DNA of 64,000 bases from Callaeas wilsoni (taxonomy: Eukaryota > Chordata > Aves > Passeriformes > Callaeidae), in NCBI GenBank assembly GCA_013398955.1, contig VWPU01012725.1:19651-83650 (forward strand), in the 5' to 3' direction. The translations under genes and the position numbers were made by a program. A model generated the notes under the pieces. It was not told the origin of the DNA. It saw only the letters and a list, made by a program, of their open reading frames with translations, and did not search any database. Numbering within the stretch: position 1 is the first letter of the stretch; every line of letters starts with the position of its first letter. This document shows positions 1 to 64,000 of this stretch, piece by piece.

Positions 1-3000
1 TGTTTCCTTCTTGCTTTGGTTTACCAGCAGTTGAGCTAACATTTGCAAAATCAGATGATATTTTGGTAAAACTTTGTGAAAGGGAATGGGTCTCTTGTGC
101 AGTTTGGTACTTTTTCCATGAAGGGTTTTGCAAAATCAGAACTGTCCCAATTATCTAAAGGTAATTCTATACATGAAAAATGTTTTCATTGGATTTCTGG
201 CACTTCCCAGTGCGCAGACTGAGCCATTCACAGAAATGCTTTGGATCACTGATACATACATTTAATAAGCAAAATTATTTCTTGCAGCTAGTTTGAGATG
301 AAAACTCTCAGCTGAGACCCAGCTGAATCTGAATCCTGACAGTCTGTGCGTGCCCGCAGCGTTACTAATGCAGTGCAGCTGTCTGTGACACAGACAAGTG
401 AGACTTGGAAATGCAGTGCAGGTCTGACTGAGTACGATTGAACTACTCTGGCAACACAGCAGAAGCATGTGTATTTTAGTTAACTTTTCTCTTCCCTTAC
501 CCTGCACATCATGAGCCCTTAATTTCCTCCAAAATCAGCCAGTTTGGCTGGGTTGGTTTATCTGCTTTGCGTGTGTTCCTTGGATACATATATAAATCCA
601 TTTACTGTATCTCACACTACCAAATATTATTTAACCCTGAAACTGGGAAATCACATTTGCCTTAAATGTCTAAGAAAGCACTGGGTTTTATTCTACTAAC
701 AAACATAAAATAATGTTCTTTGTTCTCTCCTGATTTATGTGAGGAAATAAGCCTCGTCTGTCCTTTCCGTTGCGGAGGAAGATCTTCAGTGCTGCTGAAG
801 CACATTTAAGATAAAATATCTTCCAACACAAATGCGCCTGATATAATAATAGGTGCTTAAACTGTGATTTATGCATCATAAAGTAACTGTGCAGATAGTT
901 CAGCAGCAGTAGATCAATTTGGATAACTTGGCACCAGTCTGGAAAAAAAATTGCTCTGGATGTAAAGAGATAATGCAATGTCCCAGTCAAACTATTGTAT
1001 ACCCACATTCTTTTAAACTGTGTTTGATTTTATGTTAATGTTTCAGACCTGAAGCTATGATGTGTGGGGTGGATAATGTGGAACCGTGATTAGTTTTACA
1101 TTTCTCGTTTTTATTCCTATTTCAGGGTAATTCTTTTTAACTTTGAGAGCTTATTACTTAATTATTATTAAAAATCTACCCGAGCAATGTGGGATACTTA
1201 AGTCCAGCTGGCTTTCTAAAAAATCCTTATGTGGTCCATTTTGCCTTATATTTACATAATTTCTGGAAAGACAACAATTACCTTTATTTTACTCTGAAAA
1301 ATGACACCATATGAGCTCTGCTCCATTACATCATTTTGGCTGGATAGTGCACCTTTTCTAACTTCATGTCTAGAGCAAATTTCAATGCAATATTATATTT
1401 CCACCATCAAATTCTGTGGCAGATTTGGGATTAAAGCCCCATTTCTTAAAATGAGAACCATTTGGGGAACTGATTTCAAATATTCTTTAATTATTTTAGG
1501 ACAAAAGACGTTCTTGTCTGTTGTATTGCTGTGCAAAAAAAATGCAGAATCAGATATGTCTTCCATGAACTGGCTGTGTCAACGGTAATATTTAGGAACA
1601 TTGAGTGGCAGAGCAGAAGTTTTGGGTGATAGTGTGCTCTGGAAAGTGAAGCCCGTGTAATGGAACATTTCCCCAGCCATCAGTGGTTCTGTGGGATGTT
1701 GAGTGTGATTCATGAGACCACAGAAGGGATCCCACTGATGGTGAGATATAAAAATGGATGAAAGCCCCAGAGTCAAGTGTTACATGAATGGCATTGCTGT
1801 CAGTGCTAAGATGGAACAGGCAGGGCGTGGGTCTGCCGAGAGAAATGAGCAGGCTGTGCAATAAAGCATCCTCGATGACAGTCCTGGTAAACGGGGTGGT
1901 TTAGTGGTGCCTGCTGAGCAGAACTAAAGGTTCAGGTGCATCAGGACTGGAGATGTGCTATTAGAATAGAAGTGGGGCTGCCAGAGTCTCTCCTTGCTAA
2001 ATAGCGAGCTTCCTTGTCCTAGTAGAAATTTGGAAGGAAGTGAGAGACAGCTAATCTTCTTTTATGTAGCCTAATGGTATCCAGCCTCAGGCAATGCTGC
2101 AGCACCCTCTCTCAGTGAAACCCTGTGAGGACTGAAAACTCCTCACTCTGAGGATTTTTGATTTTCTTAAGATCCCATATTTCCCAGCTCTTTGCCCAGT
2201 TCCAAGCCCTGCTGCATGGCAGCCATGTGCTTTCTTTGGCTCTCCTGCTGCAGTTTGCTTTCCTCCTTCCATTAGAAAAATAGAGAAGTTGGTGTCACAT
2301 GGGCTGTGTGCTTCTTGCATTTCAAACCCCTTGATGGAGGTTTTCTAACTTTCCCCCAAAGAAGATATTTGAGGTACTTTTTCAAATGATGTTTTGTAAA
2401 TAGCTACATAACCAGACTGACTGGCTCAGGAATATCCTGCCTGTCTTCTAAAGCTTTTTTTTCTAGTGAAAAGAGTTTTAAAGTTTGCAGAAGCTGTTCT
2501 GTGAATGAGTTATGGAAAAAGTTGAGGCCATCTGATCATGCAAATGTACTGATCGAAAAAGCAGTGACCTCTTTCCCTGGGTCCCAGTAGGTAGTAGACC
2601 AAATCTCAGATTTCATTTGAGTGCTGGAGTGCTAAATTGAACCGAGAGAAATTTGTGTGAAGTGTCTCTGTGATGTTTAAAGAGCAGACACTAGGGGGTA
2701 GCCTTCCCCTTCCAAAGCACCCGAATACATGAATTATGAGCTTCCTGAGTTTCGTATATAAAACCTCTTTAAGCTGTTTAGTTATCCCAGTTCTCAGACT
2801 CCATTCACAAAATGCCCTTTTTGTTTTCTTCTTCTCTTTGTTACGTTGGGAAAGCATCCACTAAGCTCAGATCTTCATTTCTTAACTAGATTCAGTAGAT
2901 CTCCCCCTCTCTCTCTTACCCCTTGGGGACTTTGCTCTTGTTCACTGTCACAAGAGCTTCCCATAGGACTGTCCCTAGGAATCCTTATGTCCTGGCTCTG

Positions 3001-4025
3001 GCTATAAGGGGCTGTTGTAGCATGCTGGCAAAGGGGAAAGATGCTGCCTGTGTGGTGAGTAGTGCTGCTGTGTCCTTTGGTACTTGTGCACTAATGAGTT
3101 CAGATTAATCATCTTTGCTGTCCAGTATGTCAGTAAAATTGATTACTTGTGTTAGATGTATAGAATTCCATGTGTTTGTTATGCTGGTTTGCACCACTCT
3201 GTGTACATTAATGTTTTCTGCTTACTGAGTTTCTATAGCAACAGGTAAATGCTTTTCCAAGGCTTTTACACTCTGGAGTAGTGTTCATCCTGAAAGTGCA
3301 TTATTTGGAATTAAAAAGCAGGTATTTATCTGCCGTGTGATAAACTTGCAGTTCTGCCACATGAGATGTGATTTTTATGTGTGTGTACATGTGTTTGTAT
3401 ACACATACCAGAAAAAAATTAATGCCTCTTGTGGCAGGTTTTTTTCCAAAGAATTGCAGATTTGATAGGAAACATTAACTTAAGAGTAGCTTTTAGAGAA
3501 AAATTGGTGATTTCTAAAATATAGCGACCTTTGTGAAGCAATCCGAAATAGGAATGCTTTCTTGCCTTTCCTCAGGACTTGGTTTTATCCCTCCAAAATA
3601 ATTTGTTTTGGTTTGGATTTATAAAGTAATGATTAAAAAACTGTTTTGACATACCTATGTGGCCGGAATGAAGAAAGAAATTTTCCAGATTTTGTTATTT
3701 TCTCTGTCTTGCCAGTCTGCTAACAACAGACAACATCAGTAGCTTTTGTCTTTACATGCTCGTGGCACGGGGTTTAAAAATCCCTTGTTTGCACACATAT
3801 GCATGAATCCTGGCACGACTCCACTAAACTGTGCCTCTTCTGTGCCTGTCCCAACTGGTGCTAACGATATCAAGCCTGTCCGAAGGAAAACAAAATCATT
3901 TGTGTTTCTCATTAAACAAAAGAGGAAATAGCTTTCAGGACGTAATACTGGAAGAGTGAGCTCTCAGCAATGTGCGAAAGGCTCAGTGTGCAGGCGAGCT
4001 CCAGAGTTATCGCTTCTCTCCGCAG
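1..4025 (+). other. MAP7D3: intron of MAP7D3 upstream of first visible exon
   Basis: About 4 kb of AT-rich sequence precedes the first recognisable exon. That exon begins at codon position 2, so at least one coding exon must lie to the left. I looked for the family's N-terminal coiled exons (Trp- and Arg/Glu-rich, with a WSW-type motif) and saw none here. Short open frames carry no recognisable domain, and no RNA gene or known repeat was identified. Confidence 0.6.
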
Positions 4026-4127
4026 CCAGCAAACGCTCGCCCTCCACAGCCAACCTCAAACAGGCCGAGGCCGCCGTGAGCAAACGCCTCTCGTCGTCTG
4101 CAGCGCTTCTGAACGCCTCGGATGGAA
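4026..4127 (+). CDS. MAP7D3: MAP7D3 exon a (Ser/Arg linker)
   Basis: The acceptor is CTTCTCTCCGCAG and the donor GTAAGT at 4128. The 102-bp exon is phase 1 at both ends. It encodes SKRSPSTANLKQ and VSKRLSSSAALLN, which match the linker that follows the N-terminal coil in MAP7 and MAP7D1 (KRST... and ISKRLSSSS...). It is CpG-richer than the surrounding intron. Confidence 0.9.
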
Positions 4128-7100
4128 GTAAGTGTGGCTGTGCGGCTGCTGGGAGCAGGGCACTGCCGAGCTGGGGCTGGGGAGGAGGCGGGAGGTGGAA
4201 TCAAACTCCTCCCTCCTCCCCTGCTATGGGACTCGCTTCACGTTTTGATCTCAGACGCGTTTCGTGCAATTTGTTAATCCAGCTTGACTGTTCAGGGCTT
4301 TGACCCAGTTGATGGGATCTCTCTCTTCTCCTAAGAGCAATGGTAAAAACTGCCGGTTTTTTATTTTTTATTTCTGTAATTCTGTTAGTAAAGTCAAATC
4401 TTGGTGAATGATTCACAGATGATTTCACGTCATCTCTATGGATTTGCATGCCTTAATTCACACCCTAAAATTTCAACAAAATAGAAATAGTACAAAAATA
4501 AGGTTTGCCTTGTTCTGCTAGACAGCTTCAGTCATTTGATTGCCAGTGGGAAGGAAAAAAATCAATTTTGACAAGGAATTGTCCTAATCTACTTGTTAAG
4601 ATAAATAAAAACTATTTGTAGAAGCACATATTTTGGCTTGTTTTAGCATGAGATTTTGTTTTGGGGAATCTTCCCAGAGTTTCATAGGAACCTGCCTGTA
4701 TCACAAATATGGAGGTTTTTGGCTTTTTTTTTTCCCCTAAAGTGATGAATAAGCTAAAAGCTGTTTACTACAAAAGCAAATTCAGCTAGGTCTGTGCTGC
4801 AGTGTTCTGCCAGTCTGCAGCCTCTGATCAAGCAAACTGTGCTAAAAGAATCCCTGACACAGACACAGCTAAAGGTGGTTTTGCTGGTTCGTGTTGGAAG
4901 GTGATGCAGCAGAAAAATTTGTGCTCATACACTTCATGCCTGGTGGGGAAATCAGTGACTATATTTATACTGGCAGGGGCTCTGAGTCACCAAAGGCTGC
5001 TTGTGATTTTAAATTATATTTATATATTATGTGTCTGCAGGGTTCAGCTCTGGGTATGAGTCAGAAGCAGGGCTGCAAAGTACAAATTAAACCTCTTGCA
5101 AAGGAAGTCACTAATTATCAACTAATTGGGATTGCTTTCAAACTTATTGTCATACCTCGAAATCCTTTGTGAATCCTTAGTCGCTTTGGAGAAAATATTC
5201 TCAGGTGGCCTGAAATACAACAAATTTGGACAGGACTCCAAGTGATCTATGTGGGCAGGATGTAGAGGTTGACTTAGGGTGATCCTGTGCTCTCAATCTG
5301 ACACTTGGGGAGAAATGTCTGTGGTAAAAAGATGGGTAAATTCAGAGGACATTAAATGCAGTCACAGAATGAACCAGATTGCTTCTGTCGTGCATGTGTG
5401 CCTGGGAGGGTGAAGGAGCAGAATGTGGAAATGAGAAGACGATGCTTGTCCTGGATCAGTGGAGTATCTCCACTTAACACTGTATTGTGCGTTAATTCTA
5501 GGCTCACTCATACTCAGAGAATGTGAGCAAAATTGTCTTTTAAAATTCTCATGTATTTTAAAAGATGCACAAGGATGGCCTCAGTAGGTCAAACAAGAAT
5601 CTGTTGTGACTGACATCCTGCTGCTGTGACCAGAAACATACAGAAATATAAGAAATAATGCTTCATATAAGACGATTCTTCCCTGATCCAGTTTTTCTGC
5701 TTCTGAAGAATCCAATATTATAAAGCAACTTAATCATTCTTCTGTCTCTTAGGGAAGTGGGGCAGGTGTTGGAGGGGACCTCTGAGCTTTTCAGCGTAAT
5801 TAATCCATGCACTTTCACTTCCAGGTACCACAAAGAGAAGTGCCTCATTAAACAGACTGAATAACAAAGTCCCTCCACATTCCCAGCAGTCAGCACCCAA
5901 AGGTTCGCAGGTGGAACAGAAAGATGCTAGAAACCAAGTTTGTTTTGAGAATTGGGAGGCAGTAAATGGGATATTTGAAGATGACTTTAAACCATGTCCC
6001 AGTTCCACTATAAATGTTTTCACTCAGGCATTCATGCAGTCTGTGCACTGTGGCATAAATACCATTATGCACATTGCAGTGCCAGATATTGGGTAACTGT
6101 CTCTAAACCAGCCTTATTCCTCTGAGAAGTGGAAGGGTGGGGGGAAAGTAGACAAATGATAGCCAAACCATTTAACTCATGAGAAAATAGTGCTTCATAA
6201 TGGTACATTGATGGTTTTAGCTGATTAGTGAAAGCAAAGCATGGGATGGCAATTTAGAAAATTATGTATAAAAGTATCTTGTTAAACATAATCTTCCTTA
6301 CGCTTGGTCTCTAGGAGGAACAGAAAAGAAGAGGAGCACATCTTTGAGTAGAATGAATAGTAAACCCCAATCCTCTCCAGAGCTAGAAAAAGTGAAAAAG
6401 GAAGAAAAACCAGGTGGTTGTTCCATAAAACTGATTTTTTTTTTAAGCCTTTAAAGTTGGATAGGGTTAATTTCACTAGCTTCCTAGGTTCTTAAATTTC
6501 TAGGACTTCTTAATGGCTTTTTAGTTACCCAGTGTTAAAGATAAAATAGTAAAAGTTAAATTTTTACTTTTGGACAAAAAAAGAAATCCTGTAAGAAGTT
6601 CTTTGTCTTTGTTAAATGGCACTGCAAGCAGATAGCAACATGTCTCTCTGCTTAAGAGAGCAATGTATTTGAGAGCTGGTAGGTTTAAGTGTCAGAAATG
6701 GTAAAAATGTCACTGATCTGTTCACTTCTTAGTTAAATCTTACCTTTGCTTTTTTAAGTTCCCTTTAATTATTCAATTTAAAAGCAACTTCTCTGTTCCT
6801 GTTGCTGGTGTAAACCATGTGCATGCAGAAGGAAGAAGCCTGTTTTCACTTCAGTCTCTTTTGGTCTGTGTATTCCCCAGTAGGTTACAAATAACCTCTT
6901 TCCTAGGTACTTCTCCTAAACCTGAAGAATAGCACCTTGTCTAATGTATTTTTCCCTCTGAGTTAACAATTCTGAAACTTTCCTTTTTAGCAGCTCTTGC
7001 CAACAGTTGAAATTATTTCTGCTTCAGAATCTTTCCTGTATGAGAGAATGATGGGTGCTGCCTATGTGAATCTGTGTGCAGGCAATGCTTGACCATAACT

Positions 7101-10100
7101 GCTCGCTTTGACTTGCAAGTCTCTGTTTATTATGTCAAAACAGCCTTTTCTGCAATCTAGAGAATGTAGCTCTGAAGAGCTCAGTCAGAAAGGTCTCATG
7201 CTTTGACTGGATTCAGCATTCACCTCTGTTGTACACGTGCCAGTCTCTGCACATTAAAATGGCTTGTACTGAGCAAGGCAAGAACCAGAAGTGCAACATG
7301 AGAGATTGCAGTGTTTAACCCTTCTGTGCTTTTAGTTTGGAATTCCCTCTCCATGACTTCAGTATTATTCTCCCAAAAATGTTATGATTTGCAACGATGC
7401 TCAGTCTTCCTTCGCTTTGTACTGCTTGTCTTTTCCATGATATGATTTCATGTTGGATCCTTTTTGATTTGTTCCTGTCATTCAGCTCGTCGCTCCCAGC
7501 TCAGTCCCCTGGACAGTAGCGTAATCAGCCGCCTCCTCGCCCCCACGCAGGCCTCCCTAGCTAGGAGTAAAAGTGCTGCTACCTTGTCGGCTGATGGACA
7601 GGACCCCTCAGGTAACAGGAGGGCAGCAAAACCTCAAAGTCTTATGCAGTTGCTCTTCAAGCAAGAGCTTAGGTGATAGCTGCTAACTGTGCTACACTTT
7701 GGTCTGAATCAGACAGTTAATACGTGGTTGTGTGTAATATTACTTACCCAGTATTTTCTGTGGTCATTAATACCCAATTCATATGCTGTGTTGCATGTTT
7801 ACTTTACAAAACCATAGAATAATATTGTCTTTTAAACTCCAGTGCTGGTTTACTTGCTCTGCAGAGAACCAGATGCTGGTATTCGTTCTGGGGCTTTTGT
7901 GTGTGGTTTTTTTAACTGACAGAGATCTGCATTTGTACCCTCAAATCAATCTGAGACATTCTGGTTAGAGCAGTACTAGGTAATGAAAGGAAAAAAAAAC
8001 CCAAACAAACCTATAATTTCAAAAGTGCAAAACCTGAATTTCTTTAGGGGAAGAAACTCTTGCAGAAACATGACAATAGGGTTACCTTTAGATAAGTACA
8101 GGGAGCTCTGAGCTGGCTTCATTCAGCTGATTGTAGAAGTGAAGGTCTAGTAGGAGAGGAGAGAAACCCTGGCTGACTCAAGCAGCTTTGTATTGGTCCA
8201 GATTGAGCTGGTATGTCCACACTGGGGCTCAGTTTAGTTCTAGAGCAGGAATTTGCATCATGGGCAAGCCCCACTAGCTGCCTCCCAGTATGTCCTGGAA
8301 TTGTTACTGGTTAATTAATAATGCCCCAGTAAATGCACCTCTGGAACCAATGTGGCGTCCTTTCTCTTCTTTTACCCTACAACGTGTGTTCCCAGTTTTG
8401 CTTGTTTCTTCTTAAGTATGTTATCCCATCGTTATTTATTATCTTACACCATTCCACTTAGTCTGTGTCAGTAATGGTGACATTTCCACACTGTTCCCCT
8501 TGTTTAATAATCAGTTTTTATTTTTTTGGTTTGTAGTCAGTAGTCATATTTTTACACACCTGTGTATGCGCTGCTTTTATCTTACCATGAATACTTCAGT
8601 TCATGTCATGTGGGGAAATACCATCTTTTTTTCTGTTATTGTTAGCATGTGACACTCACTATTGCTGAATTAAATACATGTTTTTATAAGTTTACTTAGA
8701 GGTACTTTTTTCATTTCAGTAGAAAAGTACCTGTGCTTTAGCACAACCTGTGCACAAACAGAATGCAGTTCTCCTTGTACAAATGCTGCAAATTCAAAAA
8801 TAAAATGTATTTTCCATAAAGTTACAATACTAAATGCTGGCATTTGTCACAATTTATTTGAATTATAGAAAAATCCAGTATCTAGTTTTAGAATATTTTT
8901 GCATCTATGTGTGCCTGTCTGTCTATGATCATGTTAGTAAAAAAGTAATAAGATAAAATTTCTTTCAATGTCTTATATGTGAAGAGATTGACACTTCACA
9001 TGCGAAATGTATTGTAGTTAAATAGTTGACATTTTTCTCTTGATGGATTTCTTTTACCACCTTTGAAAAGAAGGGAGGTTTCCTCCTTGAGTATAGAGGA
9101 AACATGCTTAAAATCTGAACCTGTCATGAAGAAATTGTCAGGAAAGATGCTAAAGCCATTAAAACTGAAGCATTTGTGATCAAATGCAACTTGACTAAAA
9201 TTAAAGTAATGCTGGTGTACTGCAAATTTGGTCCATTTTTGGAAAAGCATTTTATTTTTATCTACTGCAGACTGCTGCTTTCAGAGTGGTTTTATTCTTG
9301 GTGCTGTTGCTTCCCAAGTACTAATTGTGTGGTGGTGGTGTCTGTCTGTGACCCGTTGCACTGTGCACTGCCTGCGGTGTTTCCCTGTATGGTTTCTAAC
9401 ACGCACAATCTCTCTTTCTCTTTTTCTCCCTCTTCCTTCTCTCCTGTTCTTATGCTGTGCACTTGGTTCTCGTTTTGTCTTGTCAAATTCCTAACTTTTA
9501 TAGAATCTCACCTCTGTCCTCGTTCAGCTTCAGCCAGTTCCATCAGTTCCCCAGTCCCAGCTCCTAAAGTGCCGGTGCGCAGCCGTAGCATCGACAGGTT
9601 GAAGTCCTCTGTGTCTTCATCTGATGCAAGTTCACCTGATTCAACCCAGGTTTGTTGAAAATCCACAGGAATTAACTTTCTATTAATCTGGGGGGTTGGA
9701 ACAGTTCAGGATGGGATCCTGTTTCACTTCTTTGCTGCTGCTTTCAGTAAGCATTAATGAAATGCATTAATGAAATTAAGCATAATGAAATAGCATTTGC
9801 CTAAAAAATACAGAGTACTAAAATCAAATTGGAATTTTATGCATCTCTCTTGTATCTTGAAGGCATATTGTTTGCTGCTTATGGTTCCCAAAGTTTAATT
9901 TATGTAAAAATTAAACACAGACGAGGTCTGTGTTTTGGAACATAAAGGAAATTCAGAGTGCATCTTGTTGAGCACTTGCTTGTTTGTTGGAATAGCAGCT
10001 CCTCTGTGTGCAGTGTATTCCAGAGAGTCAGCAGTATTTTGGTTTTGTGTATCTTCTAGAAATCAGAGACAGAAAAACCATCCCCAAGTTCTGGTTTGAG

Positions 10101-13100
10101 GCGCCCTCCCTCACCATCCGTGTCTGCCCGTAGAAGATCCCCCTCTCCTGCTAATTTGGTGAAGCGTCCTCCATCCCCTTCTGCAGTCAGGTATGTGTCC
10201 AAATTAAACCCCTTCTGCAGTCAGGTATGTGTCCAGGTTAAAGCCCTTCTGCAGTCAGGTATGTGTCCAGATTAAAGCCCTTCTGCAGTCAGGTGTGTGT
10301 CCAAATTAAAGCCCTTCTGCAGTCAGGTGTGTGTCCAAATTAAAGCCCTTCTGCAGTCAGGTATGTGTCCAAATTAAAGCCCTTCTGCAGTCAGGTATGT
10401 GTCCAAATTAAAGCCCTTCTGCAGTCAGGTATGTGTCCANNNNNNNNNNNNNNNNNNNNNNNNNNNNNNNNNNNNNNNNNNNNNNNNNNNNNNNNNNNNN
10501 NNNNNNNNNNNNNNNNNNNNNNNNNNNNNNNNNNNNNNNNNNNNNNNNNNNNNNNNNNNNNNNNNNNNNNNNNNNNNNNNNNNNNNNNNNNNNNNNNNNN
10601 NNNNNNNNNNNNNNNNNNNNNNNNNNNNNNNNNNNNNNNNNNNNNNNNNNNNNNNNNNNNNNNNNNNNNNNNNNNNNNNNNNNNNNNNNNNNNNNNNNNN
10701 NNNNNNNNNNNNNNNNNNNNNNNNNNNNNNNNNNNNNNNNNNNNNNNNNNNNNNNNNNNNNNNNNNNNNNNNNNNNNNNNNNNNNNNNNNNNNNNNNNNN
10801 NNNNNNNNNNNNNNNNNNNNNNNNNNNNNNNNNNNNNNNNNNNNNNNNNNNNNNNNNNNNNNNNNNNNNNNNNNNNNNNNNNNNNNNNNNNNNNNCCAAA
10901 TTAAACCCCTTCTGCAGTCAGGTGTGTGTCCAGGTTAAACCCCTTCTGCAGTCAGGTACGTGTAGACATCTTTTATTCAGCACAAAATGAAGGCTGCTTC
11001 CTGTCTCAAGACAGCTGAGCTGTTAGTTTGAATGGCCTATGCTATGCCTTGTTTGTACAGAAAAGACTTCATTTTGGGTCCAATTTCCCTTTCCCACAGT
11101 AGAGATGCATCTTTTACTCCAACCTTTGTTGTGCAGACAAAACCCACCCTAATTTTCTGTGCAGCACTGAAACCAACAGGATACCTGCAAGCTGTTGAAT
11201 AAACTGATCCACCTGTATTAGCATAGGAAGTTTCTTGGAGTGGAATCATGAGGTTCATCCTAGATGTGCAGTAAATGGAGATCTGGGCTAGCAGTCGTGT
11301 TTTGATGTTAGCCCACAAGTAGCAAGTCTGTATGCCCAAGGTATCTTGGAATCCTGGTTTGAGTTTTATGGGGAAGGCACTGGTAATTGTGGGTGGATTT
11401 GTTTTTTAAAGTGAGGTATGTAATAGAAACTAAACAAAGAAGACTGCTCTCCTCAGATGCATGGTTGAGGTTTTCATTGGTAGGTCTGAAAAATATTCTT
11501 TAATTCAACAGACAGAAGACTCGCCCACCTTCACCTGGCATGTCAAAACAAAGGCCACCATCTCCTACTCCAGTCTCTAAATCTGCACCCATCCAGCGTC
11601 CATCTCTCACACCAGGTGTTACAAACATTACCAAAAAGAAAACCGAAGCAGAGAGCAAACCAAAGGATAAAAGCACAGATGGAATAGGACAAGAGCAAGG
11701 TGCTTCCCCAGCCTTGGAGAGGGATGCAGGAGCAGCTAGCACAAAAACCAAAGAAGGTGGGTGTTTCTCAGTGTCTGACTCACTCCTGCTCGAGGCCTCT
11801 CCAGTGTGTGCTGGGACTGGGCAAACAATTGGCTTGTGAGGCAGAGCACTGGAGGGTAGGATGCTTTAAGGCAGAAGCTGTTCATTGCTGATTATACGAT
11901 AATTTTACATGATATGACTTTGGGATGTGAATTTTAATGCAGTAGTTGGTTTATTTGACTTGGAGATTTAAGTCAGAAGCTTTCAATTTTACTACTCGTA
12001 CTGTAATTTTAAGAAAAGCAGAAATCCTCTTTGCCTCTTGGGCTTCAGCTGCTCTAGCTGAGGGTTCTACTAGCTTAGGTTTATAAAGTCAGTAGTTAAA
12101 CTACGCAAAAGTCTTTCAGTTCAGTTGGTAGTTCTTAAAATGCTCCACTGTAGAGACCTGCTTGGAGGACAAAATCAGCTCCTGTTCATCACAGGCTGAG
12201 AGAGAGTTTTCAGAACACTCGAAGGCTGCCTCGGCCTGAGTTCCAGTGAGTGTGTAATCATTGCTGTCCTGGGAAGAGTGATCAGTTCAGAAGTTACACT
12301 GAGAAATTATCCTGGTAGATTAAGGAGAGCCATATACCGGATAAGCAATTAGTGTCCTCGTCCTCTTCATTGTGGCACGTGAGCCCGGCCTCTGTCCCTC
12401 GCTGGGAAAAATGCCAGCTGCCATCTCCAACAGAATCTGGGAGAGCCTTCTGATGAGGCCTGGCAGGCAATTCACTGTGGGGAAGGACTTAGGGGACCCT
12501 TGACAGGAAAAAGGAGGGATCTTTAGAATGTAAGTTACAGCCAGTGGGCAGTACAGGGGGTGAATCCATCGGACACCAGGTAAGTGGGAACATGTGCTTG
12601 CTGCACGTTACTGCATGTGCGGTTCCTGTGTGCATTCCTCGGCTGCTGCTGCTCTCTGCCACTTCTGAGGCTCCTCCTGGCACTGCTTCTCTTGGATGTG
12701 GAGAAGTGTCATTCAGCTGAAGAACTCATGGTGCAGCTCTCTGGGCATGTGTTCTGTGGAAGGAAGCCTGGCTGTCAGAGGTGGATGTTTGTACGAAGTC
12801 ACACATCCGTCTTTGGTGTCACGTCCTTTGTCTTTGCAGTCAGAACGTCCATCCCTCAATGTGCTGCCATACTATTGACAAATGTCTCGTGTGCCTCAGA
12901 GCATCATCAGTTCTGATCAATGTCATCAGTTGGTTGAAGCCTCCATAACAGTGTGTCCTAGTCCTGTATCTTCCAGTTCTTCTGGAACACGAGCATCTGT
13001 CCTTGTTCCTTGGATGCCTGATCTGTCTCCTCTCTACACTGACTTCTGAAACTGTATTAACTCAGTTTATCTGTTTCCCCTTTAGTTTATTTCTAATCTC

Positions 13101-25354: not shown

Positions 25355-26170
25355 AAGCAGGCACTAGCCTCACTTTTATTCAGTCTCTAAACATACACTG
25401 ATATAATAGGAGAGCTAGCGTTGTCTGAGCTATTTTTAAGGCACTTGTAAATGCATGTGCATGTTGTAGGTGAAAGATTTACTACTTGTTAATGGATTAA
25501 TAATTGTACACAGACAGCCTTGTTTAAACAATGATATAAAAAAAGCTGAGGAGGACTTGCAGGCAAACCATGCGGAAATCAAGAGTAAAACAAGTTTATG
25601 GAAACTTAACTAAGCTAAATGTCACTGCCAAAACATTGTTATCTGTAAGATGAAGCCATTCCATACATGTGCTGCAATGTGGTGTGGTAGAGTAAGCTAA
25701 GGTATTTATTACTTATTAATGGTGTGGTGTATGTTGTGTATCTGTACTTGTAGAAGCATAATAATGGATCCCTCTGATCCCAAGTGCAATCTTTGCATCT
25801 CTGTGTCCAAGGTACATGCCTTGTCAAACCCACTTCAGTTAAGTGCCAAGCTTAATCATATACCAGATAAGTTTAAAACTAGATTTGTTTTAGTTTAAGC
25901 CACACACAGATGATGCAGTGTGTGGATCTCTAAATCTAACAGCATTTCAAGCCTTTATACTAGGAGTTACTTGGAAACAAGGTTAGATTTTTGCAAGGCT
26001 ACATGCTTTTGTACTGCAGGAGCTTCAAAAGTCAAACCCAGTATATTGAGGCTAATTTAGTTCTTACACTTAAATGGAAAAAGTTAAAATTCTCAACATG
26101 CAAAAACCTGCTCTTTTACCAGGACTGTTTGGGAAAGCAGGGCTTTAAAATCCATCTTACATCTGCTCAT
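25355..26170 (-). other. FHL1: FHL1 3' UTR
   Basis: The untranslated region runs from the TAA at 26171 to a likely cleavage site near 25355. It is AT-rich, with several short open frames of no significance. A proximal signal (AATAAA at 25710-25705, minus strand) could give a shorter form. Confidence 0.6.
25375..25380 (-). terminator. FHL1: FHL1 poly(A) signal
   Basis: The minus strand reads AATAAAAGTGAGGC, about 790 bases after the stop codon. Downstream TAGTGCCTGCTTGG is moderately GT-rich. Confidence 0.55.
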
Positions 26171-26325
26171 TTACAGTCGCTTGGGACACTCAGCACAATA
26201 AATTTTTCCGTTATGGCAAACAAAGCGCTTGTTGGCCAGACCACGGGCACACTTTGTGCATTTGAAACAGTAATCGTGCCAGGATTCATCTTCGTAGTTA
26301 ACCACACTGGTTCCTCTTCCAAATC
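26171..26325 (-). CDS. FHL1: FHL1 last coding exon (LIM4)
   Basis: The exon follows a NAGNAG acceptor (CTCTCCTAGCAG). From the CAG it gives [35 protein letters not shown] and AECPKRL-stop (TAA at 26173-26171). Using the upstream TAG would insert one Ala. Human FHL1 has no Ala there, so I take the CAG. Confidence 0.95.
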
Positions 26326-29300
26326 CTGCTAGGAGAGAACACAATTATAGGACGGCGATAGTAGCTTTGCCTGGGCTGGGTTATCCCATCAAACAGCACA
26401 GCCTGTTCTGCTGCCTCAGTGCTTCTCTAGGCTTGCAGGCCATAGGGGGTGCCTGAAATATTAAAGTGGCAACTGAGGCATGGTTTTGTTGGTTCTTCTG
26501 ATGTTTCTTGGAGAAATAAGTATCTTAGCATAAGGCTTGCATGGCTTGTCTCTGCAATAAGCTTTTTCCCTTGGCTCCTTTCTCCAGCAAACAGTCAAGG
26601 AGAGATGTGGAGCAAGGACAGGTTGGGCTAAACATTTCTGGGCTAAGATCCATGCTCTAAAATGCAGGATGGAATGTGAGCCTCACGGGACTGGCAGGAC
26701 AGTGCCCACATTTCAGGGCTGAGCTCTCTAATCTAGTGAGTTTTAAGTGTGGAATACATCAGAAGGGGTGCAAATGTCCCTTTGGAGCAATAAAACACCG
26801 CTCGTTTTAGGCTTAAGGGTCCCAAACTGAGACATGGGTGGGAACAGTTGTGGTTGGGGGAGTTTTGAAAGAGGTAAATTTGAGACATGCGAAGGCTGAA
26901 GAGCTCAGTTACTAGCTCAGCCTCCATCCAGCACAAGCACGTGGCTCAGAGTCAGATCCCATGTAAAATGCTGGTATTGGGCTTGGGTTACCAGACCTGC
27001 CTCTGATGTTAGCCATCCCTGGGCTCCCTGTCTTTGGGGGATCGCTGTCCTGACCTTCAGCACCCACTGCCCTCAAGCTGCATTTAATCCAACATACCTG
27101 TAATAGGATTCTTGCATCCAGCACACTTCTTGGCAACACACTCCTTGTAGCATTCAACGCAGTAAAACTCATCCTCCACAGCTGTGAAGCGCTTCCCACC
27201 CAGTTGCTTCTTGCAGTTGGAGCAAATGAAACACTCGGAATGCCAGGGCTGTTCCTGGTAAGTGAGGCCTCCAGAAGTGATGGGCTGGGAGAGAAGGAGC
27301 AGAGGTGTGGTTTAGAATCAGCAGGGGAGAAGAGAGGTGACATAGGCATGGGGTGTAAGGTAGGAAAGCTTTGTCATGGAGAGGATCTTTCCAGAGTTTG
27401 CACCAAAATTTAACTGGGCAGTTCACTTGAGTCCCTCTAACCTGAAATCCCACATACCTGGCACTTTCATAATACTTTCTTTTACTTGCAGTAACTGAAA
27501 TTCCACATTAATCAGTTGCAGAAGCTGTAAAACAGCTACTGTTTCAATTCTTGAATATTCAGTACTGCTGCAGAGCTTAAACTATCCCCAAAGCAAGTGC
27601 AAGACTGGTATCAATTGGTTTCTGCAGTGTTGCTGTCAGCTAACCCAACAACCCCTGCCCAGATCCTGTAATGCACAGGAACGATCGGCTCTCCCATCAT
27701 TCCACCAGCTGCTGGCACCAGTATCTCAGGGAAAGAACATCAGCTTTGGTGCAGCTTCAGCATGGTCTGCCTGCTGGTTCACCCTCCCAGCTCCCAAAAG
27801 GCACATGAGGGCTGGTTCTGGCAGTTGCCTCTGCAGAGGGGAAGGACTTACGTTCTTGCACTTAGCACAGGTCTTGGCAAACTTGTGCTCATGGCAGGAG
27901 ACACAGTAGAATTCATCACCCTTGGGGAAGAAGCTCCCAGATCCAATCACTTGCTTGCACTGGCTGCAGGTGAAGCAGTCCTTGTGCCAGACCATCTTCT
28001 TGTACTCAACATTTTGGTCTCCTACAACAGATAAAAATAACTTGTCATGTGAGATTTCAGGCCTGTGGCAAACCCTTCCTCCTGTACCTTGTAACATCTG
28101 TGGGCAAGACCTGTCCATAACTATGCACAGGATTCCACTGGAATGCAGACAAGGGATGAGCTGGTAATTTCTGTATCTGATTTTAGCCAGGACCTGCTAG
28201 TTTTTCTTAAAATAGTTAATCAGACCAGCTGCCTGAGCCTTTGAGGACCTGGATTTACAGAGCAAAGCTTTTGGTAGGAATGGTTTAAGACTGCCATTAG
28301 GGTTAATTATCCACATGAGGGTTAACTGTGAAGCAGCTTTTCAACACTTGCATAAAATGGACAGGTGAGAGCAACAGTCAAAATTTACTGCTCTGAGGTG
28401 CTCCAGCCTTCCACTGTGATGCCCAAACCCCTAACTGCAGCCTCCCAGCCTCATAAACCACCCTGGTTATGCCCTAGAGCAGAACGTGGCCCTCAGACCC
28501 CAGTCACTTACACAGTACCTGCAATAATGGGCTTGAAGCAGCCCTTACACCTGGGTGCATCCTCAGCAGCGGTGCAGTTGCTGCACCAAACCTTGTTGTT
28601 CTCCCTCAGCATGAAGGGCTCGTTGACCAGGGATGTGTAGCACTTGAAGCAGCGGAAGCAGCTGTCGTGCCAGTAGCGGTTCTTGAAATGCAGCTCCTGG
28701 AACGAACAGAAAGGGAGGGAGGGAGTGAGAGAGAAGCTTTTATCTCCCCCTGAGCAGCCCTAAAGCCAAGCTCCAGTCTCATCAGCCTGGGCAGTAAAGG
28801 ATAGATTTGTTGTTCCTGAGTTTGTCTGATTCAGTGGGTAGAGCTACAACTCCTCTTCAGTCGCTTAAGGGAAGGACATTTAACCAAACTCAGTGACACA
28901 ATCACATTCACTTTGGACTTTTGGAGGTGCAGAAGATGCTTCAAACCAACAGCTCTGAGATTTGAAGTTCTGCAAGTGTGGGCTTCTCAGGTTCTTACAT
29001 TCCCTCTAGTTCAGGTGTACATTATTATTGCCATAAACATTTATCTGGCCCCAAAGGTATTTCTAATGACTTCAGTAATATCATATTTCTATACACAAGC
29101 AACACCAGCTTCCAGTTTTAGTGGAGATCAAAAGGTTCCACCACCAGGCTTGCAGATATTTGCAGGTCCTCCAGTTTGTGTTTCTTCATGTCCTACTTGC
29201 TGTTATGGTGTCTGAACATCAGAGATACTATTATAAATTAACATAAGGAAAAAAACCCAATAGAACCATCTTGCCATCCAACTGCTTGTTCTCTCTCTCG

Positions 29301-29851
29301 CTCTCTCTCTAAAGAACTCTTGATTTCCATCATGAAGCAATAAGCATCTGACAAACTGACAAAAATCAGACCTCAGTGCTTTGCCCAGAAGATGAGTTTT
29401 GCAGGCCCTGTGCAGGCTGGCTCCCTGCAGTTCTCTCTCCAGGGCAATTCTGCTTTTACAGCAGTTCATGTGGCTGAATCTAGACCCTGAAATGAGATCC
29501 TGTGCCAGAGCAGCTCACCATGAGCATCCCTGTGCACGCCCCAGCACTGCTCTTTGCCCAAGGAGCACAGGGCTGGCAGCCAGAGGACTCCCGAAGAACA
29601 GCTCTTTCACAGTGGCTCAGAGGCAGACCAGAGCAAACAGGAGGGTGATCAGCACCTGCCTCTCCTCATCACCCACTGAGGTGCTCGGCACTGACCTTGG
29701 AGTCGGCCCCGATGGGTTTCTTGCACTCGGTGCAGGTGTTGGCGCAGAACTTCTCGAAGCACTTGACGCAGCAGTGCCGCCCCTCCTTCTTCACGTACTT
29801 CTTGCCGTGCAGGGGGTCGCGGCAGTAGTGGCAGTCGAAGCGCTCCGACAT
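26171..29851 (-). CDS. FHL1: Four and a half LIM domains protein 1 (complete, spliced)
   Basis: FHL1 is a zinc-binding scaffold of muscle sarcomere and nucleus, built of an N-terminal half LIM and four full LIM domains. Five exons (156, 178, 170, 187 and 155 coding bases) join in frame to 281 residues plus stop, against 280 in human FHL1. The protein starts [20 protein letters not shown]; human has [20 protein letters not shown]. It contains [48 protein letters not shown] and SWHDYCF, and ends YCAECPKRL. Every LIM shows its CxxC pairs and, where complete, its H-x2-C, so no zinc ligand is missing. The ATG at 29851 has A at -3. Identity as FHL1 rather than FHL2 or FHL3 rests on the PITGFGxGxSVV and GADSK segments and on the MAP7D3 neighbour. 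Confidence 0.96.
27098..27284 (-). CDS. FHL1: FHL1 exon (LIM3)
   Basis: The acceptor is CTTCTCTCCCAG and the donor TTACAG|GTATGT on the minus strand. The 187-bp exon encodes [34 protein letters not shown] and [13 protein letters not shown], very close to human FHL1 LIM3. Confidence 0.96.
27852..28021 (-). CDS. FHL1: FHL1 exon (LIM2)
   Basis: The acceptor is TATCTGTTGTAG and the donor AAGAAC|GTAAGT. The 170-bp exon encodes [38 protein letters not shown] and [11 protein letters not shown]. It is nearly identical to human LIM2. Confidence 0.96.
28519..28696 (-). CDS. FHL1: FHL1 exon (LIM1)
   Basis: The acceptor is GTTCGTTCCAG and the donor TTGCAG|GTACTG. The 178-bp exon encodes [33 protein letters not shown] and [14 protein letters not shown]. 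It is the most diverged of the FHL1 exons from the human sequence, but all zinc ligands are kept. Confidence 0.95.
29291..29310 (+). repeat. short CT microsatellite
   Basis: Ten CT-type dinucleotides with one CG interruption, in the FHL1 intron before LIM1. On the gene strand it reads GA. Confidence 0.85.
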
Positions 29852-29877
29852 CGTGCCCACGGTGTAGCTGCCAGGCC
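29696..29877 (-). CDS. FHL1: FHL1 first common coding exon (half LIM)
   Basis: The acceptor is CTGTGCTCTTGCAG and the donor TCCAAG|GTCAGT. The ATG is at 29851 ([10 protein letters not shown]). The exon also has an open 26-base leader upstream of the ATG encoding PGSYTVGT. That leader corresponds to the PSSYKVGT of longer mammalian isoforms, so it can be coding when joined to an upstream coding exon. GC and CpG are high. Confidence 0.96.
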
Positions 29878-52402: not shown

Positions 52403-52597
52403 CAGAGGAATTTTCCACCTAAATGCCCCAATGCATTCCCTGGATGGTGAATGAACTTAAAAGAACACAGAGGAATTTTCCACCTAAATGCCCCAATGCA
52501 TTCCCTGGATGGTGAATGAACTTAAAAGAACACAGAGGAATTTTCCACCTAAATGCCCCAATGCATTCCCTGGATGGTGAATGAACTTAAAAGAACA
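52403..52597 (+). repeat. three perfect 65-bp tandem copies
   Basis: The unit starts at 52403, 52468 and 52533 with CAGAGGAATTTTCCACC and ends GAATGAACTTAAAAGAACA. The copies appear identical, which indicates a very recent duplication. It is not part of the CR1 that follows about 90 bases later. Confidence 0.95.
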
Positions 52598-61300: not shown

Positions 61301-63884
61301 GCCAAACAGATAAAATTTAAGAAGAAATTTGGTTCTTGGTCTTTAACAGTTATCAGTTCCTGGGTGGATACCTATTGAGAGAGATTTAAAAAAGGTTTCT
61401 AATAGCAATGAGGTAAAGTAATATACAATATAAGGTTTTCCTTCAAACAGAGCAAAGGGATTTGTGATGATACATATTACAGACACATGTATATCTTTAT
61501 CTTACTATACATAATTACCCTAACGTTGATCTTCTTCCTTGGTGCGAGACTCACCAGGAGTTTCATGTTCCAGACTTGAAAAGATGGCTTCCAGGCATCA
61601 GACCAAAATTAAGCTTCTTTATTAATTTTAGCTTTAGATTTTAGTCTAGGAAAAAAATTATTCAAGGTACCCACAGGCTAACATGAGTAAAATACATATT
61701 TTAATGGCAGAGGAGATTTTCACAGCATGACAAATTTCATTTTGCTTGAGTCTGCAGCTAAAATCAAATCAATTAGAAAGCTGAGGACCATGAAGAAACA
61801 CATACAACTGGATTAGATCATTCCATGAACATGAGAGACAACAGGCACATAATGGGCTGGGGCTCACAGTGTTTGCTACAGCTCAGGGAACCAAAATTAA
61901 ATTCCTCATCGTGGTACAAACTGCTTCCTTGACTTGGGCTGAGTCACAACATGGGCCCCTCAGGCAATACCTGCCTGGCTCCAGGGCTGCTGGGAATGCT
62001 GTGGACACACTCCAGAAAGGAACAGTGGTGCTCGGTGCCTGCAGTCCCTTGTTTGTGGCCGCGTTCACCTGTCAGCATGACCATGATGGAGGGGTTTGCT
62101 GAACGTGCCTCAGGTTCCTGTGTGCACAGAGACATAAGAGCATTTTTTGCTCCCCTCCTAGGGAGGCAAAGATATGTGAAGGTTTAAAATGCAGGCTTTG
62201 CAACAACAGACAGGTAGTAAGAGGACAAACTTTCAGACTCAAAAGCACCCCATGGAGCAGATTCTGGCTCCAGAGCAGAGCTGGAGACATGGAACCACTG
62301 CAAAAGGCTCACACAAACCTTCTCTGCTGCTGCAGCATCTTCCAGTCCATGGGATGGGGTGCAGAGTCACACCCCAGCCCCCTCCAGCACCTGCCACAGT
62401 ACTCCAGAGTGTCCTTGTTTCTCTGCATGCAAAGCCTCGATTTTGACTTACAATTAATGCAAGTGAAAATCATATTTAGTGACATAGTTAATGGCATCTG
62501 AATCTGCGCAGAGGCTTAAATTTGGTGTGCTTCAAGGTATCAACATAAACAATCCATATGGTGCCCAGGGTTACACCAGGAGCAAGGTGGAGAAAGCAGC
62601 CACTGTCCAAGGCTATGGATGAGATCTGTCCCGGGGGCTGGAACTGAACACCAGCCCAGCTCACCACACCCAAGTGCCTCCGCATAAATCAAAGTCTTTT
62701 GCTTTTCCCTGAAGGCACTGGGAATTGTACTTACTGCTCAGACCTGCACTGATGGTGATGTGGAAAAGCCAGGTCACACCTTTCCATCTTTTCTGCTTTC
62801 TCCTTGTGTCCAACAGCACTGGCTAGGTGAGCATTTTGAATTTCTAGACCGGATCAATTTTCCTTTGCTGAAAAAAACATTGGATTAATATTATAAGATT
62901 ATTGATGGAAAACTTAGTCACAAACAAGGTTGGGGTTTTTATTCTCTCTGCCAAACTAATCAAGGGAATGGTATCCCATTAAATTATATACTTCATGTTA
63001 GCTTCATACTTAGGCAAAAAGTAAATTTGTATAAGATTTCCAGAGGCTTTGTTTCACAAACAAAAAAAGAAATAGTCATGGGAAAATTACAAACCATTTG
63101 GCACTAAGGAAATTATGAATGCAATTTCCTGAGCTCAGTGTGCTGAAGGAGCTGAAGTAAATAGCTGTCAGGCAGCTTTCTCGAACAAAAGATTTTAGGC
63201 TTGATACTCAGCTGTGAAGGAGATTTGTCTGTGCTGGACTTTTGTTCTCCTTCCAGTCAGATAGGATTTTCAACTGGCTTAATTTAGCTGGCACAAAGGG
63301 AGCATGGGTGTGTTGCCTTTGGTTTAAACCGAATTTTCTGGGAATCATCTCTTGAGTAAAAATGACAGAACTCACTTCTTTGCTGAGTTCTGCTGAAGAA
63401 AAGTAATTTAACGATGATTTGAAGTCAAATTGAGAGACCCAAGAGAAAGATCTCAGACATATGCATGGCTACAGAGAAGCTGTCTTCCTGCCATTTCCAA
63501 ACTGAAATAAATCTCTTCAGTAAAAGCAGATTGGGATTTTTTTTTCCCCTCAGCAGCTCAAATGAGAGTTGGGAACAGAAGAAGAAACTGAACCAACAGC
63601 AGGGAAAAATATTTGGCATTAGATAGTCTGGATCTGAGGAAGAACATGAGAATTGTGCACAGACTGCTTAGATTTTGATGAAGCAGTACCTCAAGAGAGC
63701 TCCTGCCACGAAGGGTGACAGAAGCATGTCCCAAGACAAAAAGGACTCCGGGTGCTGCACACTCCCTTCCCACCTCCCTCACGCAAACCGGAGCGGGTCA
63801 GTGAAAAATGCTGCCAGACCGACCTGGGGGACTGGTCGGTGCCTCGTGTCCCCTCCCGCAGCCGCTGGCTGGGGTGCAGGTGCT
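55317..63884. other. 5' flank of FHL1, no gene recognised
   Basis: In human the next gene on this side is SLC9A6; I saw none of its membrane-segment exons here. The region contains one CR1 fragment (59872-60138) and AT-rich non-coding tracts (57220-57480 and 61290-61800). Open frames over 130 codons on both strands lack domains and splice context. Confidence 0.5.
59872..60138 (+). mobile_element. CR1 LINE fragment with intact 3' tail
   Basis: The fragment contains GGTTTAGATTGGATATTGGG, GGAACAGGCTGCCCAGGAAA and a 3' end TATGATTCTATGATTCTTTT, the direct-repeat tail typical of CR1. Its inner sequence differs from the 52690 copy, so it belongs to another CR1 subfamily. Confidence 0.92.
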
Positions 63885-64000
63885 GCTGGGTGCAGTGGGC
63901 GCCGCTGGGTGCAGTGGGCACTGCTGGGTGCAGTGGGTGCTGCTGGGTGCAGTGGGTGCTGCTGGGTGCAGCAGGCACTGCTGGGTGCAGCGGGCGCTGC
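63885..64000 (+). repeat. 19-bp minisatellite running off the window
   Basis: Six units start at 63885, 63904, 63923, 63942, 63961 and 63980, with core GCTGGGTGCAGTGGG plus a variable four-base end. The array continues past the right edge. Open frames here (minus strand Thr/Ala/Pro-rich) are artefacts of the repeat. Confidence 0.95.

What the first reader, a model, noticed from the sequence alone, without database searches (positions are those of the whole stretch)
10175..10955. Minisatellite that multiplies a 5' splice site in MAP7D3
A 34-bp unit copies the last 16 bases of exon f plus its donor and 18 intron bases, giving at least ten CAG|GTRTGT or GTACGT donors in a row. Each unit also holds TTAAA and a pyrimidine-rich CTTCTGCAG, so a unit boundary resembles a 3' splice site joined directly to a 5' splice site, the layout of recursive splice sites. 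The unit is 1 mod 3. Using donor 2 or 3 shifts the frame, and using donor 4 or later includes the in-frame TAA at 10273-10275. Only the first donor keeps the protein intact, so array size could tune productive splicing.
Basis: partly seen in the sequence, partly recalled or inferred. Interest (0 to 1): 0.78.

Follow-up and report, generated by a model that had tools for sequence, protein, structure and literature searches.

The report
Repeat multiplying a bird splice site
In a bird genome, probably a songbird's, a short DNA repeat straddling an exon end of the gene MAP7D3 has copied that exon's splice signal at least ten times; it is real and unusual, but repeats of this kind are known from human genes, and most likely the cell mainly uses the first copy.

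Summary
Observation confirmed. A 34-bp minisatellite starts in the last 16 bases of a MAP7D3 exon (10060-10190) and gives ten visible CAG|GTRYGT donors, eight before and two after a 456-bp N gap. The gap is out of register with the unit, so copy number is unknown. Frame claims hold: donors 2-3 shift the frame; donors 4-8 meet TAA 10273-10275. In the 120 best-listed bird proteins (of 5763 hits) the junction is as donor 1 predicts in 112; 8 have 1-4 extra residues.

Recursive splicing is not supported: 10 of 10 sites miss a published search motif, narrowly, by one base. Length-dependent tuning is untested and less likely: flanking introns are 410 and 1321 nt, and minigenes with two identical donors under exon definition used the upstream one only (PMC9225289).

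Best reading: a local minisatellite, mostly silent because donor 1 wins, perhaps with leak. [quoted passage not shown] New member of a known kind. No RNA, population or other-bird DNA was available.

The parts
10060..10190 (+). MAP7D3 coding exon 'f', 131 nt, ends ...SPSAV(R)
   Evidence: Splice consensus and open frame; junction SPSAVR|QKTRPPSP matches bird MAP7D3 proteins
10175..10208 (+). Unit 1 of the minisatellite: 16 exonic + 18 intronic bases, contains the productive donor
10191..10192 (+). Donor 1 (CAG|GTATGT), the only one of those tested (1-8) that joins directly to 11512 in frame without a stop
10175..10439 (+). Left part of the 34-bp array, 8 donors with GT at 10191 + 34k, k = 0..7
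10273..10275 (+). TAA that falls in frame if donor 4 or later is used
10440..10895 (.). Assembly gap, 456 N, out of register with the 34-bp unit
10896..10963 (+). Right part of the array: donor CAG|GTGTGT with GT at 10922, and last, partial copy CAG|GTACGT with GT at 10956
11512..11756 (+). Next MAP7D3 exon 'g' (QKTRPPSP...)

Best explanation
A minisatellite arose by local duplication of a 34-bp segment that straddles the end of a MAP7D3 exon, so every readable copy carries a full, fairly strong 5' splice site (shown). Splicing most likely uses the first donor in most transcripts: the exon lies between introns longer than 250 nt, and under exon definition the donor nearest the exon's own acceptor tends to win among equals (inferred from published minigenes). 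Later donors are mostly silent decoys with some leak into frameshifted or stopped mRNAs that nonsense-mediated decay would remove (inferred). The array is therefore tolerated and probably free to vary in length, as the human CBS 31-bp VNTR does (inferred by analogy).
For: Array and donors as described. The frame through donor 1 is open, and the junction reads as donor 1 predicts in 112 of the 120 bird proteins listed (best 120 of 5763 hits; several isoforms per species); the other 8 have R replaced by SR (3), RQN (2), SRQN (2) or RYASR (1), and none carries the array's read-through peptide. Searches for proteins with the donor-4 read-through tail (3 candidates, none at E <= 10) or the donor-2 frameshift tail (no candidate) found none; these searches did not return the ordinary orthologues either, so their sensitivity is low. 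Flanking introns are 410 and 1321 nt with the gap as given, the long-long class of PMC9225289; there five exon-defined minigenes with two identical CAG/guaagu donors all used the upstream one exclusively. CAG|GTATGT also sits at 27100 on the minus strand, where the reading frame of an FHL-type LIM exon appears to end and go on in the next exon (my inference), so the nonamer is probably a working donor in this genome. In human controls the CBS unit c.1444_1467+7 is present in 16-21 copies (17, 18, 19 and 21 copies at 0.05-0.77 in Czech and 0.19-0.38 in pooled African chromosomes; PMC2630376), so such arrays are tolerated.
Against: No RNA data. The minigenes held two donors, not ten or more, and of consensus sequence (CAG/guaagu); with weakened donors the two larger constructs (L and XL) mostly skipped the exon. 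In the same paper natural pairs of near-equal strength favoured the upstream site in only 60%, and all pairs together favoured the downstream site in about 60%. Array donors are stronger than 10 of the 13 other donors that I inferred for this gene in the window, both by pairing to U1 (-9.6 to -10.2 kcal/mol) and by a recalled frequency matrix, so they should bind U1 and could compete. [quoted passage not shown] and the CBS VNTR is by title associated with reduced CBS activity. Neither paper is held.
Confidence: 0.68

Rival explanations
1. Splicing rheostat: the donors compete, later ones feed decay-bound mRNAs, and array length sets the share of productive MAP7D3 mRNA.
For: Ten near-equal donors; each of donors 2-8 gives a frameshift or stop when joined directly; [quoted passage not shown]
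Against: Exon definition favours the upstream donor; later donors would make ever longer exons, 165 nt for donor 2, 369 nt for donor 8 and about 860-900 nt for donors 9 and 10 with the gap as given; no protein record with the predicted tails, a weak negative.
Confidence: 0.16
2. Scarless self-removal: each unit's TCAG|GT works as a dual-specific site; splicing from one unit to the TCAG of a unit at least two further on removes a multiple of 34 nt, leaves TCAG|GT, and the final mRNA is the same. The array would be removed stepwise, or surplus units corrected after use of a later donor.
For: AGGT core in 10 of 10 units; [quoted passage not shown] For the 8 array sites scored as acceptors, pyrimidine share upstream of TCAG (0.59-0.65) overlaps the low end of 14 real acceptors of the gene (0.59-0.88), and the longest pyrimidine run (7-8) lies inside their range (4-15). 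One of those 14 real acceptors also has an AG only 6 nt upstream.
Against: Published recursive-site search motif missed in 10 of 10, by one base; a competing AG 4 nt upstream in each unit, whose use would add TCAG and shift the frame; the acceptor at 11512 is outside the array; a one-unit step of 34 nt is very short for an intron (recalled).
Confidence: 0.1
3. Assembly artefact: the array or its length is wrongly assembled.
For: N gap inside the array, size out of register.
Against: Units differ by substitutions in the intron part (+3, +12, +13, +19, and +4 in the last copy), and the flanks run into exon and intron sequence that fits the gene. A gap inside a tandem array is what short reads give.
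Confidence: 0.03

Closest known systems
[quoted passage not shown]
   Same: By its title, a minisatellite whose units supply splice donors to one transcript; seen only as a reference in two papers, one of which cites it for minisatellites 'interfering with gene splicing'.
   Different: Paper not held, so unit length, frame effects and donor use could not be compared; I recall the gene as 6-16/IFI6, from no call.
Human CBS 31-bp VNTR, c.1444_1467+7(16_21)
   Same: By its name the unit has 24 exonic and 7 intronic bases, so it includes the donor, and the annotated exon end lies in the first unit (my reading of the name); 31 is 1 mod 3 like 34; substitutions between units.
   Different: Other gene and sequence; copy number known to vary, not tested here. 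The primary paper (Lievers 2001) is not held.
Tandem arrays of dual-specific AGGT splice sites (UBC, VCX3A; Duan et al. 2024, PMC10809524)
   Same: AGGT in every repeat unit, so an intra-array splice is scarless.
   Different: UBC units are 228 nt, coding, and multiples of 3, with shown use of the sites; here units are 34 nt, nearly all intronic, use unknown.
Recursive splice sites (PMC10156609)
   Same: YAG joined to GT with pyrimidines upstream.
   Different: Search motif missed by one base, extra AG, spacing 34 nt, no lariat evidence.
Intron gain by tandem duplication of an AGGT segment (PMC4974935, abstract and outline seen)
   Same: Duplicated segment crosses an exon-intron boundary and carries AG and GT.
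   Different: No new intron is evident here; the copies lie inside an existing intron.

Membership tests
Minisatellite/VNTR spanning a 5' splice site (CBS type) | Tandem unit of tens of bp with many copies | tested here: met
   34 bp, 10 visible copies
Minisatellite/VNTR spanning a 5' splice site (CBS type) | Unit includes exon end and donor | tested here: met
   16 exonic + 18 intronic bases, CAG|GTRYGT in 10 of 10
Minisatellite/VNTR spanning a 5' splice site (CBS type) | Normal protein uses the first donor | tested here: inconclusive
   Predicted from protein junctions in other birds, 112 of 120 listed; whether those birds have the array is unknown, and there is no RNA from this species
Minisatellite/VNTR spanning a 5' splice site (CBS type) | Copy number varies between individuals | not testable with these tools
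   One assembly, with a gap; own-genome search did not complete
Recursive splice site | Y5+N0-4YAGGT | tested here: not met
   0 of 10 array sites; each has N5; motif from PMC10156609
Recursive splice site | Lariat or sawtooth evidence | not testable with these tools
   No RNA reads
Dual-specific splice sites in tandem repeats | AGGT core in every unit | tested here: met
   10 of 10 readable units
Dual-specific splice sites in tandem repeats | Used as both 5' and 3' site | not testable with these tools
   No RNA reads
Dual-specific splice sites in tandem repeats | Spliced intron length a multiple of the unit | tested here: inconclusive
   Intron f as inferred is 1321 nt with the gap as given, not a multiple of 34, but the gap size is an estimate; its acceptor at 11512 is outside the array

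The most novel reading that the evidence does not exclude
The array is a length-variable splicing device: ten to about twenty-five strong donors either draw MAP7D3 transcripts into decay in proportion to copy number, or act as dual-specific sites that remove the surplus units scarlessly, so that a frame-breaking repeat at a coding boundary is corrected at the RNA level. The evidence excludes neither.
Probability: 0.17. Interest if true: 0.6.

Novelty: new member of a known kind. Interest (0 to 1): 0.36.

Why it matters
It is a natural test of how the spliceosome picks among ten or more nearly identical donors in a row, beyond the two-donor minigenes that I read about. If donor 1 is used almost always, it shows how robust exon definition is and why such repeats are tolerated; if not, copy number would be a heritable dial on a protein of the family that recruits and activates kinesin-1 (abstract of PMC6446838 as listed).

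Tried and rejected
Recursive splicing as the lead: set aside after the motif test; the acceptor survey is mixed and does not exclude it. Assembly artefact: kept only for the length. RNA structure: the array folds better than shuffles (z -2.76, 1 of 200 shuffles as good); the repeated, self-complementary CTGCAG may be the reason, which was not tested. Rfam: no match at gathering score in 9000-12500. Unit core in viral contigs: none. Protein records with the out-of-frame tails: none, weak. Invariance of the 15 exonic bases over 10 units could be selection or homogenisation; not claimed. Which copy is ancestral (GTATGT first or GTACGT last): not decidable without another bird's DNA.

Papers, what I saw: PMC10809524: abstract, results part 1 of 2, sections 7, 8, discussion. 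PMC9225289: abstract, results part 1 of 2, passages. PMC2630376: passages and section 13. Passages only: PMC1395315, PMC7277093 (no VNTR in the part held), PMC10156609, PMC2915984, PMC3549977 (chicken MUC2, no array of donors in the passages), PMC3618361. PMC4974935: abstract and outline. Everything else: search listings. Searches for repeats on splice donors showed no bird MAP7D3 case in the rows listed; some searches listed only 20 of 199, 20 of 4,644 and 12 of 325 papers, and the library holds only open-licence papers.

Full report
What is there. A 34-bp tandem repeat begins in the last 16 bases of a coding exon (10060-10190) and runs into the following intron. Ten copies are readable: eight up to 10439 and two after an N run of 456 bases; the last copy is partial and stops matching near 10963. 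The same point of the unit on the two sides of the gap is 459 bases apart, 13.5 units, so the gap length is an estimate. If it is about right there are roughly 23 copies; this is not established. CAG|GTRYGT occurs 13 times in 64 kb against 1.37 expected, 10 of them here. Across the ten copies the 15 exonic bases next to the donor do not vary; the intron part varies at +3, +12, +13 and +19, and in the diverging last copy at +4 and at several positions from +9 on.

The gene. Fourteen exons that I chose on the + strand between 4026 and 21857 join into a 661-residue open frame with a Pfam MAP7 domain (E 4e-44). The protein search gave 5763 hits; the 120 listed are from birds by organism name, mostly called MAP7D3 (a few 'ensconsin-like', 'MAP7D2-like' or hypothetical). 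The closest are songbirds: Pseudopodoces humilis 96% over the whole query, Ficedula albicollis 97% over 86%. An FHL-type LIM gene lies next door on the minus strand; the tools' best names for its first LIM stretch are FHL2 (2miu) and 'FHL2/3 N-terminal LIM domain', while FHL1 is what I recall beside MAP7D3 in human. The window is from a bird, probably a songbird; the species is unknown. The own-genome search did not complete in nine attempts.

Which donor makes the protein. Exon f joined by donor 1 to 11512 gives ...PSPSAVR|QKTRPPSP.... Of the 120 listed proteins 112 have a single R at that place as donor 1 predicts; 8 have SR (3), RQN (2), SRQN (2) or RYASR (1). Rows include several isoforms per species, and whether those birds have the array is unknown. 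Donor 2 (+34) and donor 3 (+68) shift the frame and stop 34 and 81 codons after the exon end, within exon g; donors 4 to 8 stop at TAA 10273-10275. Searches for records with the predicted tails found none, which is weak: such mRNAs would be decayed, and the searches, which rest on exact short words, did not return the ordinary orthologues either.

Strength. By pairing to the U1 5' end (recalled) array donors score -9.6 to -10.2 kcal/mol; 10 of the 13 other donors that I inferred are weaker. A recalled frequency matrix gives the same count. The nonamer CAG|GTATGT also sits at 27100 on the minus strand at what appears to be the end of a LIM exon. So the array sites are competent in sequence, and silence, if they are silent, must come from context.

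Recursive splicing. The analogy was tested with the search motif of a lariat study, Y5+N0-4YAGGT (PMC10156609, passages). All 10 array sites, unit 1 included, have N5; 34 of 229 YAGGT sites in the window, both strands, meet the motif, none of them in the array. As acceptors, the 8 array sites that could be scored have a second AG 4 nt upstream and pyrimidine shares of 0.59-0.65 (TCAG) or 0.53-0.59 (GCAG), against 0.59-0.88 for 14 real acceptors of the gene; their longest pyrimidine run, 7-8, lies within the real range of 4-15, and one real acceptor has an AG 6 nt upstream. One unit of 34 nt is very short for a vertebrate intron (recalled); two units, 68 nt, would be possible. So recursive splicing is not supported, and not excluded.

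Because each unit contains TCAG|GT, a splice from one unit to the TCAG of a later one removes a multiple of 34 nt and restores the same boundary. [quoted passage not shown] Its authors think such expansions less harmful because they can be spliced out. That could apply here; nothing here shows it.

How it most likely works. The exon is 131 nt between introns of 410 and 1321 nt (the second counts the gap as given). In PMC9225289 flanks over 250 nt mean exon definition; five minigenes with two identical strong donors used the upstream one exclusively, and natural pairs of near-equal strength favoured it in 60%. Against this, all natural pairs together favoured the downstream site in about 60%, weakened donors gave mostly exon skipping in the two larger constructs, and each construct had two donors, not ten. 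On balance donor 1 should dominate, with leak. The array would then be a tolerated passenger.

What is known. The human CBS 31-bp VNTR is written c.1444_1467+7(16_21), by its name 24 exonic and 7 intronic bases repeated 16-21 times; in controls 18 copies is the commonest Czech allele (0.77) and 21 the commonest in the pooled African sample (0.38) (PMC2630376). 31, like 34, is 1 mod 3. A literature-mining table lists it as 'exon 13-intron 13' with raised homocysteine (PMC1395315), and a 2001 paper is titled as associating it with reduced CBS activity (reference lists). [quoted passage not shown] Neither is held. So the kind is known, and the 1995 title counts somewhat against complete silence. 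No bird MAP7D3 case showed among the rows listed by the searches made.

Verdict. Observation confirmed; anatomy and frame logic confirmed; recursive splicing not supported; length-dependent tuning possible but less likely than dominance of donor 1. A good natural experiment on donor choice, not a new mechanism on present evidence.

Noticed in passing
52403-52597: Three perfect head-to-tail copies of a 65-bp unit (100% matches), which may be a recent duplication or an assembly effect.
   Followed up: partly
63879-64000: Imperfect 19-bp (and 57-bp) tandem array GCTGCTGGGTGCAGTGGGC that runs to the window end.
   Followed up: no
26170-29870, minus strand: FHL-type LIM gene next to MAP7D3; one of its exons appears to end in the same donor nonamer CAG|GTATGT (27100).
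   Followed up: partly
Bird MAP7D3 proteins P0042, P0059, P0062, P0063, P0076, P0079, P0092, P0100 (compare P0054): Small differences at the exon f/g junction (VSRQ, ARQNQ, ASRQNQ, VRYASRQ against VRQ) in birds that are not songbirds; the swan Cygnus olor has records with and without the S, which suggests shifting splice-site use at this junction.
   Followed up: partly
10156-10439: The repeated self-complementary CTGCAG just upstream of each donor lets units pair in predicted RNA folds (z -2.76).
   Followed up: partly
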